A program made the position numbers and the translations under genes. Source: Methanobacteriota archaeon (lineage in GTDB: Archaea; JAADCQ01; Methanopyri; Methanopyrales; Methanopyraceae). From it: DNA of 64,000 nucleotides. Under the pieces are notes generated by a model, which saw only the letters and a program-made list of their open reading frames with translations, did not search any database and had not been told where the DNA came from. The DNA is taken from contig JAMOPO010000057.1 of the NCBI GenBank assembly GCA_027064425.1, positions 62,001 through 126,000 on the forward strand. The letters are read 5' to 3'. Shown here piece after piece: positions 24,460-29,276 of the stretch. Position 1 is the first letter of the stretch. Every line of letters starts with the position of its first letter.

Positions 24460-24522
24460 GTAATGAGGAATGCGGTGGCCCTCCTCCTCGAGGGATGACG
24501 AGTACGGCGGATTGCCGAGCCG
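24460..24522 (+). ncRNA. weak C/D-box sRNA candidate between sepS and the SpoIIM-like gene
   Basis: Plus-strand AUGAGGA (24463-24469), AUGACGA (24495-24501) and CCGA (24515-24518) occur with C-to-C' and C'-to-D spacing like the two better candidates in this window. The C/D pair would give the same G-C substitution in the kink-turn. Against it, there is no clean D' box at the right distance, only a short terminal stem, and no TATA box upstream. Confidence 0.25.
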
Positions 24523-24547
24523 CGGGGGGCGATGGGGACGGACCCAG

Positions 24548-26182
24548 TCACCTGACCTCCGCCTCCAAGGTCACGAACACCGGTCCCTTCACCTCGATCC
24601 TCTTCCCCTTGTCCGTGATGTACCGCAGCAGCCGGTCGGAGAGCTTGATGTTCACCTGCGACGGGCGCGAGACCTTCCGCGCGCGGACCGTCGTCTCGCC
24701 GCCCCCCGACGCCAGCAGCTCCTCCACCTCGTAGGCCAGCCGCGCCGCGAGACCCTCGTCGAAGGAGACGCCCGAGTCCACGCCTTCTTCCCGGATCTCC
24801 CGCCCGAACTCACCCTCCGGCGGGACCGCGTACACGCTCCCGTCCCGCACGTACACCCGGTTGAACGCCGCCGGTCCCGCCAGCGGCTCACCCTCCTCCC
24901 GCTCCACCGCCCGCACGACCACCTCCATCCCCTCGAACTCGCCCTCGAACAGCGTCACCTCCACCGGCCCCTCCTCGTCCGCGTGCTCCCGGAGCCCGCG
25001 CACGACCTCCCGCACCAGCCGCTCCCCGAACGACGTCGCCGGCTTAACCTCGTAGTCGATCATCCGCGCCAGCTCCAGGTCCGACGGCTCCCACGGCTCG
25101 TGCTCCACGTACGCCAGCGCCCGCACGTCCTCGATCCCGTACAGCACCATGCAGAGCCGCTCCACGCCGATTCCCAGGTTCAGCACCGGGTACTCGATCC
25201 CGTACTCCGCCAGCGCGACCGGCGAGTACAGCCCGAACGTGGCGATCTCCACCCAGCCCGGGCCCAGCTCCTCGTCCTCCACCGAGTCCTCCAGGTCCGG
25301 GTGGTACGCGTACACCTCCGTCTGCGTGCCCGGCACGTAGTACTTCGACATCTTCTCGTCCGGCACGAACTCGAAGTCCTCGAACCCGAACTGCCGCAGG
25401 ATCGCCTCCGCCACCGCCTTGCCCGTGTCCACCGTCACGTCGTCACCCACCACCACGCACGAGGCGGAGAAGTAGGAGTACAGGTGGCTCTCATCCTCTC
25501 GCTGCTCCCGCCGGAAGCACCGATCGATCGAGAACAGCTTCAGCGGCGGCTCCTCCCGCTTCAGGATCTCCGAGAGCGTGATGAACCAGCCCGCCGTCAT
25601 GTGCGACCGCAGCGTCAGCGGCGGGTCCAACGGCTCCGGCCGCAGCCTCCGGAACTCCGGGAACACCTCCTCCAGCACCCGCACCGCCGTCCCATCGTCC
25701 GTGTTCAGCGCCTCCGCGATCGCGTGCGTTAGCTCGTCACCGTCCAGCTTGCCCTTCTTGTACTCGTGCAGCGTCTCCCGCAGCCGCTCCACCTCCTCCT
25801 CCGACGGCTCTCGACCCAGCACCTCCGCCAGCTTCTCCACCTTGTCCTCACCCAGCCCCACGTCCGGGCGCGGGAGACCCGCCAGGTAGAAGCACCGGTC
25901 CAACACCGCCGCCGCCTCCGGCCCGAACTGCTTGTACACGTCCTCCTCCGGGATGATCACCGGGTTCACGACCTCCTTGAACCCCGCCCGCAGGTACGCC
26001 TCCCGCAGCCGCTGGATCGTTTCAAAGAGCGGGTGAGGCTCGCCCGCCTCCACCTTGAGCCGCGGGTAACGGTCCTCCAGCCCCGGCTCCCGAACCAGCT
26101 TCGCGCCCTCCTTCCACGCCCGATCGAAGTCCTCCCGAGCCAGCGACCGGAGCTCCTCCAGCCGCTCCTTGTCGAAAGGCAT
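24548..26182 (-). CDS. sepS: O-phosphoserine--tRNA(Cys) ligase (SepRS)
   Basis: A 544-residue class II aminoacyl-tRNA synthetase that charges tRNA-Cys with phosphoserine, which SepCysS then converts to cysteine; this route is a methanogen hallmark. Motif 2 is visible as LFSIDRCFRREQREDESHLY followed by SYFSASCVVV. Motif 3 lies in YPVLNLGIGVERLCMVLYG. The phosphoserine-binding region includes LTLRSHMTAGWF. The C-terminal domain (from about residue 400) matches the SepRS-specific extension. The ATG at 26182 is preceded by a GGGGGAG ribosome-binding site and an AT-rich box about 40 bp upstream. Confidence 0.95.
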   Translation of the reverse strand: MPFDKERLEELRSLAREDFDRAWKEGAKLVREPGLEDRYPRLKVEAGEPHPLFETIQRLREAYLRAGFKEVVNPVIIPEEDVYKQFGPEAAAVLDRCFYLAGLPRPDVGLGEDKVEKLAEVLGREPSEEEVERLRETLHEYKKGKLDGDELTHAIAEALNTDDGTAVRVLEEVFPEFRRLRPEPLDPPLTLRSHMTAGWFITLSEILKREEPPLKLFSIDRCFRREQREDESHLYSYFSASCVVVGDDVTVDTGKAVAEAILRQFGFEDFEFVPDEKMSKYYVPGTQTEVYAYHPDLEDSVEDEELGPGWVEIATFGLYSPVALAEYGIEYPVLNLGIGVERLCMVLYGIEDVRALAYVEHEPWEPSDLELARMIDYEVKPATSFGERLVREVVRGLREHADEEGPVEVTLFEGEFEGMEVVVRAVEREEGEPLAGPAAFNRVYVRDGSVYAVPPEGEFGREIREEGVDSGVSFDEGLAARLAYEVEELLASGGGETTVRARKVSRPSQVNIKLSDRLLRYITDKGKRIEVKGPVFVTLEAEVR

Positions 26183-26215
26183 CCAGGCTCCCCCGGGGGA
26201 TGAGCCCCGACGGTG

Positions 26216-26227
26216 AACTTATGATAG
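26216..26227. promoter_or_regulatory. AT-rich box, possible shared promoter of sepS (left) and an sRNA (right)
   Basis: AACTTATGATAG is the only AT-rich stretch in the 201 bp between sepS and the next plus-strand gene. Leftward, a start about 26 bp away would fall near 26196, leaving a leader of about 14 nt before the sepS ATG. Rightward, it would fall near 26248, directly at the foot of the C/D-box RNA candidate. Confidence 0.45.
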
Positions 26228-26238
26228 CGTCCCCGACC

Positions 26239-26313
26239 GGGCCGCGCGGGATGAGGAGGTCCCCCAGAGCCGAGCCGGATGAGGAGTGGACTCGGGACCG
26301 ACCCACCCGGCCC
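26239..26313 (+). ncRNA. candidate C/D-box guide sRNA
   Basis: The plus strand carries box C AUGAGGA (26251-26257), a 12-nt spacer, D' CCGA (26270-26273), 5 nt, C' AUGAGGA (26279-26285), a 12-nt spacer, and D CCGA (26298-26301). Spacer lengths fit archaeal double-guide RNAs. Both C-type boxes differ from the consensus UGAUGA at the same base, and both D-type boxes differ from CUGA at the partner base, so the usual U-U pair of the kink-turn becomes G-C. Flanks can form a terminal stem (GGGCC 26239-26243 with GGCCC 26309-26313; GGG/CCC closer in). An AT-rich box lies about 26 bp upstream. Targets were not determined. Confidence 0.5.
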
Positions 26314-26383
26314 CGCTTTCACCGACGACGAGTGCGGACACAACCGATCGCAGGCCCTCGCCGCTCCCTGGGGGACACCCATC

Positions 26384-27175
26384 ATGCGGTGGATGCGGTG
26401 GAGAGCCTGGCGGCCCCCGTTAGACCGCTTGATACCCTGGAGAGTTACCATCGCCCTGATTCTGCTCGTCTTCGTCCTTGTCTGCGCCGCCGGCGCCCTC
26501 GCGCTGGTGGCGGCCAAGGGAGTGACGCGCATGAGCGCGAGGACGTACGTCGAGAACTTTAGCGGCGACGCGCCGAACCGCCTGAGCGTCAGCGTCACCG
26601 TCACGGGAGACGGCGACACGCTCGCGAGCTGGAGCGTCGACGGCATGAAGAGCAAGTCGGTGTCTAGGAGCTGGTTCGGGATGGTGGGTAGCGTCACGGT
26701 GACCCTCGACGCCAACTACCGCGCCACTTGGCTGAGCGTGGGGGCGAGTAAGACCGTAGCGATACGCTTCGACCGTGACGAGAACGGTCGCGTGCGCGTA
26801 CGAGTGAGTGGCGATTCCTCCGCGGTGGCGACCAGCACCGAGGACGGCAGACCGATGCTCGCGTGGCTGGTGTGCGAGAGGGGCGAGGGCGGGCAGGCCT
26901 GCGTGCTGATCATGAGGGTCGAGCCGGTCGACGGTCACGGGTGGAAGGTGGAGCACGACGGGGACCGCCCCGTCGTATGCTGGGAAGCCGAGAAGGAGGC
27001 CCGTATCAGGCTCAAGGTGATCGGGGTGGGGACGGAGGGAACGGTCACGCGAGTCATCGACATCACGTGGTCTCACAGCCGGTGGCCCTGGCGCGAGTCC
27101 GGGAGCACCGCCGAAGAGCGGGCCAGCCTCATCGACCTAGTCGTTCCCTGGCCCTTTCTTGCCCTGCCGGAGTGA
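26384..27175 (+). CDS. membrane-anchored extracytoplasmic protein, unknown
   Basis: A 263-residue protein. A basic, Trp/Arg-rich N-terminus (MRWMRWRAWRPPLDRLIPWR) is followed by a membrane helix (VTIALILLVFVLVCAAGALA, about residues 21-40). The remaining 220 residues are beta-strand-rich (LSVSVTVTGDGDTLASWSVD, GSVTVTLDANYRATWLSVGA) and probably lie outside the cell. No family is recognised. The ATG at 26384 is preferred because it starts just before the charged segment and anchor; sequence further upstream belongs to the sRNA candidate region. Confidence 0.55.
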   Translation: MRWMRWRAWRPPLDRLIPWRVTIALILLVFVLVCAAGALALVAAKGVTRMSARTYVENFSGDAPNRLSVSVTVTGDGDTLASWSVDGMKSKSVSRSWFGMVGSVTVTLDANYRATWLSVGASKTVAIRFDRDENGRVRVRVSGDSSAVATSTEDGRPMLAWLVCERGEGGQACVLIMRVEPVDGHGWKVEHDGDRPVVCWEAEKEARIRLKVIGVGTEGTVTRVIDITWSHSRWPWRESGSTAEERASLIDLVVPWPFLALPE

Positions 27176-28081: not shown

Positions 28082-29158
28082 GTGGTCGACTGGCGGGAAA
28101 TACCGGTGAGGCCGACGCCGGTCGCGGTAAAGAAGCTGAAGGAGGCGTGTCCGACGGTTGAGTCGCTGCCGTTCGACCCGATCCCTAAGCGGCTGGAGGA
28201 CGGGGTGAACCCGAGCCCGGTGTGCGGGTTCAGCCGGGCGCACCCCATGTTCTTCGGGGACGGGCCGAAGGAGTCGCACTGGCGGGAGGGGCTGTGGTCG
28301 GAGCTGGAGGTGTTCCTGAGGGTTCGCCCGCGGAAGCTCCACTGGGATGAGGTGATCCTCGGGTTTCTCGACCTGGTGGGGGCCGTCTGCCGCCGGGCTA
28401 GTGAGTTCTTTCTGGAGCCCTCGATGGGGGAGGCGCTGCGCGTTTGCACGGCGCTCAGGATGCTCGGGAGGCTGTGCCAGGAGGGTGAGTCGAAGGGCGT
28501 CTCGAGCGGCACCCTGAGCGAGGCTCTCGAGGTCATCTCTGGGGTGCTGGAGGTCGAGCTGGACTTCCTAACCTCGAGCCAGTCCCTGCTGCTGTCGACC
28601 GGGCTGCTGGACGCGTTCAAGCGGTGTCTGCCGCTGCGTCCCTCGTGCTGGGTTGAGTTCGCCCTGCAGTGTCACGCCTGCGCGCACCGCGGCGTGAAGG
28701 CCGAGGACGTGCTCGAGGACGTGGAGGAGCTGGGGGTGGAGGATGCCGAGGAGTGCCGCGGCCGCGTTGAGCGCGCCGTCGACCTGGCGGTGAGGGGGCT
28801 CGAGGACCGGATCGGCGAGCTGGTGGGCCGGTACCGCCTGAGCGAGCTGATGAGCATGGACGTGGAGGAGTTCGCGGAGCGAGTCTCCGAGACCCTGGCC
28901 GACGCGCTGGCGCTGCACGCTAAGCCGGTGGTCGCGCTGGTGGAGGAGCCCGAGGGAATAGTGGAACGATGGTTGTCCGTGCCGGAGGATATTGAGGTCG
29001 ACGACGTTAAGGTGCCGCCCGGCGAGTACGATCCGATGTGGAGGGACGCGGAGCGCACCGAGCGGGCCTTCGCCAGGGTTGACGTGAAGGAGCTGGTGAA
29101 GCGGAGGTTCCGGAAGTTAATCGAGGAGATCCGGGAGGCGCTCGGGTCCGGCCGATGA
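28082..29158 (+). CDS. unrecognised 358-residue protein, probably lineage-specific
   Basis: A mostly helical, Cys-containing soluble protein (PSPVCGFSRAHPMFFGDGPK near residue 50; LVGAVCRRASEFF; QCHACAHRGVKAEDV). The C-terminal third is strongly charged (VERAVDLAVRGLEDRIGELV, ELVKRRFRKLIEEIREALGS). No catalytic motif or family was recognised, and there is no signal peptide or membrane helix. The frame is long, uninterrupted and has codon use like its neighbours, so it is accepted as real. The GTG at 28082 is the assumed start. Confidence 0.6.
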   Translation: MVDWREIPVRPTPVAVKKLKEACPTVESLPFDPIPKRLEDGVNPSPVCGFSRAHPMFFGDGPKESHWREGLWSELEVFLRVRPRKLHWDEVILGFLDLVGAVCRRASEFFLEPSMGEALRVCTALRMLGRLCQEGESKGVSSGTLSEALEVISGVLEVELDFLTSSQSLLLSTGLLDAFKRCLPLRPSCWVEFALQCHACAHRGVKAEDVLEDVEELGVEDAEECRGRVERAVDLAVRGLEDRIGELVGRYRLSELMSMDVEEFAERVSETLADALALHAKPVVALVEEPEGIVERWLSVPEDIEVDDVKVPPGEYDPMWRDAERTERAFARVDVKELVKRRFRKLIEEIREALGSGR

Positions 29159-29204
29159 GGAGCCCACCCCGGTGCCGACGGGAGATGGGGAGGGGCTAGG
29201 GTAC

Positions 29205-29276
29205 CGAGGCGCCTCGGCCCCCGTCCAACTCGTCATCGGGCCCCTCAGACTCGGGGTAGGATCCTCATCGGCCTCA
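29205..29276 (-). ncRNA. candidate C/D-box guide sRNA starting at the stop codon of the RNA methylase gene
   Basis: Read on the minus strand: box C AUGAGGA (29268-29262), a 13-nt spacer, D' CUGA (29248-29245), 8 nt, C' AUGACGA (29236-29230), a 12-nt spacer, D CCGA (29217-29214). GAGGC before box C can pair with GCCTC after box D as a terminal stem. C and D again carry the paired G/C variant of the kink-turn; C'/D' is less regular. A TATA-like TCTTTACC (29302-29295) inside the gene upstream predicts transcription from about 29274. The complement of the D' spacer contains GGGGUAGGA, which from memory resembles the conserved 690 loop of archaeal 16S rRNA. Confidence 0.45.

What the first reader, a model, noticed from the sequence alone, without database searches (positions are those of the whole stretch)
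26239..26313. Candidate C/D-box RNA whose kink-turns carry matched U-to-G / U-to-C changes
Seen: AUGAGGA-12 nt-CCGA-5 nt-AUGAGGA-12 nt-CCGA with a complementary foot (GGGCC/GGCCC). Known: box C is RUGAUGA and box D is CUGA, and base 5 of C faces base 2 of D as U-U in the kink-turn. Here that pair is G-C in both motifs. Two independent matched changes are unlikely by chance and may be a GC-rich or thermal adaptation of the L7Ae-binding motif.
Basis: partly seen in the sequence, partly recalled or inferred. Interest (0 to 1): 0.75.

Follow-up and report, generated by a model that had tools for sequence, protein, structure and literature searches.

The report
Methanopyrus C/D-box methylation guide RNA
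This is a gene for a small guide RNA that probably directs two methyl marks onto ribosomal RNA in a heat-loving archaeon; it is an ordinary member of a known class, but its altered boxes exposed a genus-wide pattern in which one base pair of the protein-binding motif changes freely as long as both sides change together.

Summary
Window 26251-26301 reads AUGAGGA-12-CCGA-5-AUGAGGA-12-CCGA and is almost certainly an archaeal C/D-box sRNA. Its nearest Rfam matches are all archaeal C/D snoRNAs. Both guides have their best rRNA targets only 34 nt apart in 23S rRNA, each with the N+5 geometry.

The matched U.U to G-C change at k-turn position 3b.3n is real, but it is neither special to this locus nor demonstrably thermal. 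Among 57 non-overlapping candidates in this genome and 47 in M. kandleri AV19, box C base 5 and box D base 2 covary strongly within each k-turn (MI about 0.6 bit, p about 5e-5). Boxes that do not pair show no such link, or only a weak one.

G-C is the commonest class, alongside U.U, C.C and A.G. Orthologous sRNAs with near-identical guides switch class on both sides. AV19 sRNAs already shown to be expressed and circular (Su 2013) include a CCGA/AUGAGGA k-turn. All-G-C sRNAs also occur in Thermodiscus, Acidilobaceae and other archaea.

The RNA is therefore a new member of a known kind. The genus-wide 3b.3n covariation, which I did not find described in the papers searched, is the interesting part. 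Expression of this RNA and L7Ae binding are untested.

The parts
26218..26226 (+). AT-rich TATA-like box (CTTATGATA), about 25-27 nt upstream of the expected RNA start; could equally serve the divergent SepS gene
   Evidence: Sequence; the lowest-GC 20-base window of the interval, 45% GC at 26210-26229. Promoter role is inference.
26239..26243 (+). 5' half of distal foot GGGCC, complementary to 26309-26313
   Evidence: Sequence; MFE fold of 26236-26316 closes with this region, -40.6 kcal/mol, z -1.9
26251..26257 (+). box C, AUGAGGA (3b = G)
   Evidence: aligned to box C of Rfam sR60
26258..26269 (+). D' guide GGUCCCCCAGAG; best target 23S rRNA G490 (AV19 numbering, about E. coli 406), 10 contiguous Watson-Crick pairs
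26270..26273 (+). box D', CCGA (3n = C)
26274..26278 (+). 5-nt spacer GCCGG between D' and C' (k-loop)
   Evidence: candidates cluster at 3-9 nt spacers
26279..26285 (+). box C', AUGAGGA (3b = G)
26286..26297 (+). D guide GUGGACUCGGGA; best target 23S rRNA G524 (AV19 numbering, about E. coli 439), 11 pairs with 1 G-U
26298..26301 (+). box D, CCGA (3n = C)
26309..26313 (+). 3' half of distal foot, GGCCC

Best explanation
It is the gene of a double-guide archaeal C/D-box sRNA of about 55-60 nt. L7Ae binds the C/D k-turn and the C'/D' k-loop; Nop5 and fibrillarin then assemble; the two guides direct 2'-O-methylation of two nearby 23S rRNA nucleotides (AV19 G490 and G524). Its k-turns carry G-C at 3b.3n, one of at least four covarying 3b.3n classes (G-C, U.U, C.C, A.G) that Methanopyrus C/D sRNAs interchange. 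The constraint acts on the pair rather than on each base. By the rules of McPhee 2014 and Ashraf 2017, G-C at 3b.3n with G:C at -1b:-1n and 4b:4n should not fold in Mg2+ alone, so it should need L7Ae. Shown: sequence, covariation, target complementarity, L7Ae gene. Inferred: transcription, protein binding, methylation.
For: The double motif is far above control. The four best Rfam hits are all archaeal C/D snoRNAs; the best, sR60, matches full length at 26247-26303 with E 6e-4. Guide 1 pairs 10 bp (186 of 4000 shuffles as good) and guide 2 pairs 11 bp (63 of 4000) at sites 34 nt apart in 23S; both at 9 or better within 50 nt occurs in 4 of 4000 shuffles. In the two genomes together, 57 of 114 candidates put both best targets within 100 nt, against 7 for shuffled guides. 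3b.3n covariation: MI 0.64 and 0.59 bit in paired boxes against a null of 0.05. Orthologues with similar guides changed both sides in 28 of 82 k-turns and one side in 20. AV19 C/D_11, C/D_17 and C/D_27, verified circular by inverse RT-PCR, map to candidates with G-C, A.C, C.U and A.G pairs. L7Ae is present.
Against: No RNA data for this organism. The Rfam scores are below gathering cut-offs and no family reaches its cut-off. This assembly holds no rRNA genes, so targets were scored on AV19 rRNA. No orthologue of this sRNA was found in the other held Methanopyrus genomes; the closest genome's contig ends 6 nt before it. The proximal stem is only 2 bp.
Confidence: 0.88

Rival explanations
1. The element is a cis-acting L7Ae-binding k-turn in the 5' leader of the downstream + strand ORF (signal-peptide-like protein, start near 26385), regulating its translation, rather than a trans-acting guide RNA.
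For: It lies upstream of a same-strand ORF, and L7Ae control through leader k-turns is known (PMC6298567 and PMC5539422 abstracts).
Against: A regulatory k-turn needs one C/D pair and no guides. Here two k-turn units with 12-nt guides and N+5-positioned 23S complementarity are present. AV19 has a similar-looking ORF beside SepS without this element.
Confidence: 0.05
2. A chance or decayed arrangement of C/D-like boxes in a GC-rich intergenic region, not expressed.
For: No conserved orthologue is visible in the held genomes, and no Rfam hit reaches its cut-off.
Against: Four exact boxes with canonical spacing, control rates near zero, full-length sR60 alignment and two nearby 23S targets.
Confidence: 0.05
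3. The G-C pair is a selected thermal stabilisation of the L7Ae motif rather than one neutral or GC-driven state of a covarying pair.
For: G-C is the commonest class in this genome (36 of 114) and all-G-C sRNAs recur in thermophile-lineage archaea. G-C far exceeds C-G (36:1 here, 21:8 in AV19).
Against: C.C, A.G and U.U together (53) exceed G-C (36) in the same genome. AV19 has 21 G-C, 20 C.C, 18 U.U and 13 A.G of 94. Orthologues switch out of G-C to C.C and other classes.
Confidence: 0.2

Closest known systems
Methanopyrus kandleri AV19 C/D-box sRNAs (Su, Tripp and Randau 2013, PMC3695527; 126 sRNAs)
   Same: Same genus, architecture and guide length. C/D_11 has the identical D'/C' pair CCGA/AUGAGGA and was verified as a circular RNA.
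   Different: No AV19 sRNA with these two guides was found. The passages read from the paper do not discuss 3b.3n pairing; its supplementary table could not be read here.
Rfam RF01309 sR60 (archaeal C/D snoRNA)
   Same: Full-length alignment, including a box C that is also AUGAGGA.
   Different: 25 bits against a gathering score of 50; sR60 box D is CUGA; guides differ.
U4 snRNA 5' stem-loop k-turn bound by 15.5K/Snu13 (McPhee 2014, PMC4382518)
   Same: Natural 3b.3n = G-C, non-folding in Mg2+ and folded by an L7Ae-family protein.
   Different: Spliceosomal RNA, one k-turn, no methylation guides.
Archaeal box C/D k-turn of A. fulgidus (Ashraf 2017, PMC5689011)
   Same: 4b:4n = G:C and -1b:-1n = G:C, needing L7Ae to fold.
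   Different: 3b:3n = U:U there, reported as the strong archaeal preference; here G:C.

Membership tests
Archaeal C/D-box sRNA | Four boxes C, D', C', D with tandem sheared G.A pairs (UGA of C with GA of D) | tested here: met
   the invariant UGA and GA are kept in all four boxes
Archaeal C/D-box sRNA | Strict consensus RUGAUGA / CUGA including U.U at 3b.3n | tested here: not met
   AUGAGGA / CCGA in all four boxes. The U.U pair is not defining in this genus: 20 of 114 and 18 of 94 k-turns keep it, and expressed AV19 sRNAs lack it.
Archaeal C/D-box sRNA | Guides of 10-12 nt next to D and D', complementary to rRNA or tRNA with a paired N+5 nucleotide | tested here: met
   23S G490 (10 bp) and G524 (11 bp), scored on AV19 rRNA
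Archaeal C/D-box sRNA | Host encodes L7Ae | tested here: met
   PF01248 hit at 102 bits; full-length phmmer match to archaeal L7Ae chains including 4by9
Archaeal C/D-box sRNA | Host encodes Nop5 and fibrillarin | not tested
Archaeal C/D-box sRNA | Expressed as a 50-70 nt linear or circular RNA and guides 2'-O-methylation | not testable with these tools
   No RNA data for this strain; AV19 sRNAs of the class are expressed
Rfam C/D snoRNA families | Score above the gathering threshold of a family | tested here: not met
   Best sR60, 25 against 50 bits
L7Ae leader-regulatory k-turn | Single k-turn overlapping the ribosome-binding region of its mRNA | tested here: not met
   Two k-turn units with guides, about 80 nt upstream of the likely start codon

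The most novel reading that the evidence does not exclude
In Methanopyrus the 3b.3n pair of C/D-box k-turns is not fixed as U.U. It drifts among a restricted, covarying set (G-C, A.G, C.C, U.U, some C.U and C-G; 3n is almost never A), so the selected property is the geometry of the pair. By published rules many of these (A.G, C.C) lie in classes that favour ion-induced folding, contrary to the view that box C/D k-turns evolved to stay unfolded without L7Ae. G-C is merely the commonest state, reached repeatedly in several archaeal lineages, and gene finders that require a U at this pair would miss such sRNAs.
Probability: 0.6. Interest if true: 0.55.

Novelty: new member of a known kind. Interest (0 to 1): 0.42.

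Why it matters
The locus itself adds one guide RNA and two predicted rRNA methylation sites. The wider pattern matters more. A base pair treated as a near-invariant U.U hallmark of box C/D, and used as a filter in snoRNA finders (SnoReport 2.0 requires at least one U there, PMC7994747), is freely replaceable in a whole genus provided both sides change together. That gives a natural covariation data set of about 200 k-turns for testing the 3b.3n folding rules with L7Ae at high temperature. It may help explain why 45 of 126 expressed AV19 sRNAs escaped computational prediction; that link is inference.

Tried and rejected
Whole-window Rfam at gathering thresholds found nothing. The best DNA match to the sRNA in another genome (G003:C46) was rejected as an orthologue: it is the orthologue of a different sRNA on contig C27 of this genome. 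16S and 23S of this genome could not be used because they are absent from the assembly. The thermal-stabilisation reading was rejected as a full explanation because C.C, A.G and U.U together outnumber G-C. Dependence of the 3b.3n class on -1b:-1n was looked for; no pattern is evident at these numbers. Of the all-G-C pattern hits in bacteria, the actinobacterial one read in full is a 32-nt tandem repeat between two ORFs, and the Mycolicibacterium hit has nearly the same sequence. Four comparison genomes were scanned for the general pattern; three had almost no hits, so only G009 was informative. Several paper searches for an earlier report of this covariation found none.

Full report
WHAT IS THERE. 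Box C is 26251-26257, D' 26270-26273, C' 26279-26285 and D 26298-26301, with 12-nt guides and a 5-nt D'-C' spacer. The element lies on the + strand in the roughly 200-nt stretch between the SepS-like gene (24548-26182, minus strand; the name rests on my own knowledge) and a + strand ORF whose likely start is near 26385. A TATA-like stretch at 26218-26226 sits 25-27 nt upstream of the expected 5' end; its role is inference.

CHANCE. The double motif RTGANGA-N8-16-CNGA-N2-30-RTGANGA, with both variable bases left free, occurs 89 times in this genome against 1 for the backwards control. In G002 it occurs 88 times against 3. G002 is M. kandleri AV19 by its length of 1,694,969 bp. Most of these are therefore likely to be real C/D sRNAs. 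Rfam at permissive threshold gives four hits in the 351-nt interval, all archaeal C/D snoRNAs; the best, sR60, aligns full length at 26247-26303 with 25 bits and E 6e-4, below its cut-off of 50.

TARGETS. This assembly has no rRNA genes, so AV19 16S and 23S were used. With the N+5 nucleotide required to be Watson-Crick paired, guide 1 (GGUCCCCCAGAG) pairs best with 23S around G490 (10 contiguous Watson-Crick pairs) and guide 2 (GUGGACUCGGGA) with 23S around G524 (11 pairs, one G-U). Shuffled guides do as well in 186 and 63 of 4000 trials; both at 9 or better within 50 nt of each other in 4 of 4000. Double guides aiming at neighbouring sites are normal here: 57 of 114 strict candidates from the two genomes have both best targets within 100 nt, against 7 after shuffling. 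The equivalent E. coli positions are about 406 and 439; the second is uncertain because the alignment is loose there.

THE MATCHED CHANGES. In k-turn nomenclature box C base 5 is 3b and box D base 2 is 3n. Strict candidates were made non-overlapping: 57 in this genome and 47 in AV19. Within each k-turn (C with D, C' with D') 3b and 3n are strongly dependent: MI 0.64 and 0.59 bit, permutation mean 0.05, p 5e-5, the limit of the test. For boxes that do not pair (C with D', C' with D), MI equals the null in this genome (p 0.44) and is weakly raised in AV19 (0.13 against 0.05, p 0.014). Observed pairs here: G-C 36, U.U 20, C.C 17, A.G 16, C.U 8, A-U 5, C-G 1 of 114. In AV19: G-C 21, U.U 18, C.C 20, A.G 13, C-G 8, C.U 5, A-U 1 of 94. 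No G.G or G.A pair occurs in either genome. Of k-turns, 73 of 114 and 64 of 94 have no U at the pair at all.

BETWEEN SPECIES. Pairing sRNAs of the two genomes by guide similarity gave 41 pairs. Of 82 k-turn comparisons 34 are unchanged, 20 differ on one side and 28 on both. An example is the guide ATCACTCCCCTG / GTCACTCCCCTG, whose k-turns read U.U and U.U here and A.G and C.C in AV19. These are orthologues by guide, not by tree, and a few pairings with one dissimilar guide may be wrong. A strongly hit archaeal genome of another family (G009) shows mainly U.U (19) with G-C second (7); 3n = C goes with 3b = G (Fisher p 0.0016). A scan of about 85,000 prokaryote genomes for the all-G-C double unit found 11 stretches, 8 of them archaeal: Thermodiscus, two Acidilobaceae, another Desulfurococcales, a Thermoproteota, one Methanopyri and two from one Euryarchaeota bin. 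So the G-C state occurs in several lineages.

ALREADY SEEN EXPERIMENTALLY. Su 2013 (PMC3695527) found 126 C/D sRNAs in AV19, most circular, and ran inverse RT-PCR on five. The printed primers for C/D_11, C/D_17 and C/D_27 map onto candidates of my list. C/D_11 has a CCGA/AUGAGGA (G-C) internal k-turn, C/D_27 an A.G internal k-turn, C/D_17 an A.C terminal and C.U internal pair. The C/D_5 primer contains the complement of AUGAGGA, but its locus is not among those held. So box variants like those in the finding are already known to be in stable RNAs. I found no paper in the held library that states the covariation, and the supplementary table of Su 2013 was not readable here.

MECHANISM. Most likely L7Ae binds both k-turns, Nop5 and fibrillarin join, and 23S G490 and G524 are methylated. 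L7Ae is encoded in this genome; Nop5 and fibrillarin were not searched for. McPhee 2014 showed that Watson-Crick 3b.3n prevents folding in Mg2+ alone, and Ashraf 2017 that G:C at -1b:-1n and at 4b:4n add to this. The window's terminal k-turn has all three, so it should be strictly L7Ae-dependent, like the U4 snRNA k-turn, which is naturally G-C. The C.C and A.G classes fall under rules that favour ion folding (3b = C or 3n = G), although 4b:4n stays G:C by the search pattern. Kuhn 2002, as cited in PMC6461891, found that U.U to A-U leaves L7 binding intact while C-U reduces it, which fits a constraint on the pair.

WHY NOT SIMPLY THERMAL. If thermal strength were the driver, G-C should dominate. 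Instead three non-Watson-Crick classes together outnumber it, and C-G is rare (1 and 8). A simpler reading is drift in a GC-rich genome within a set of tolerated pair geometries, with G-C reached through G.U. This is inference; a mixed cause is not excluded.

LIMITS. Expression, protein binding and methylation are untested for this RNA. No orthologue is visible in the other held Methanopyrus genomes: AV19, G001 and G004 differ at the locus, and the nearest relative's contig ends 6 nt short of it. The candidate sets require RTGANGA and CNGA in all four boxes, so sRNAs with degenerate C' or D' are missed.

Noticed in passing
window 24495-24556 (+): Another C/D sRNA candidate at the 3' end of the SepS-like gene: ATGACGA-13-CCGA, degenerate C' ATGGGGA, D CTGA. 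The same first guide is found beside SepS in AV19 (G002:C1:409879), G003 and G004 with different 3b.3n pairs.
   Followed up: partly
window 29268-29214 (-) and 29155-29205 (+): Two C/D sRNA candidates facing each other: the minus-strand one has ATGAGGA/CTGA and ATGACGA/CCGA boxes, the plus-strand one ATGAGGA/CCGA with a degenerate C' (ATGGGGA).
   Followed up: partly
L224 / G000:C15:147375-147850; AV19 G002:C1:1607244-1607719: A C/D sRNA candidate lies on the opposite strand just upstream of the L7Ae gene in both genomes.
   Followed up: no
G000:C27:102247-102450 (L122) and AV19 205343-205442 (L077): Runs of C/D units in tandem (sRNAs 16 and 17 of Su 2013 lie side by side in AV19), so a box of one sRNA can be misread as belonging to its neighbour.
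   Followed up: partly
L233 3931-4062 (actinobacterial MAG); also L231: A 32-bp tandem repeat containing ATGAGGA and CCGA between two ORFs that look like thymidylate synthase and dihydrofolate reductase (names from my own reading); an unrelated look-alike of the C/D pattern.
   Followed up: partly
G000 genome: No 16S or 23S rRNA gene was found in this 57-contig assembly although it is rated 99% complete.
   Followed up: no
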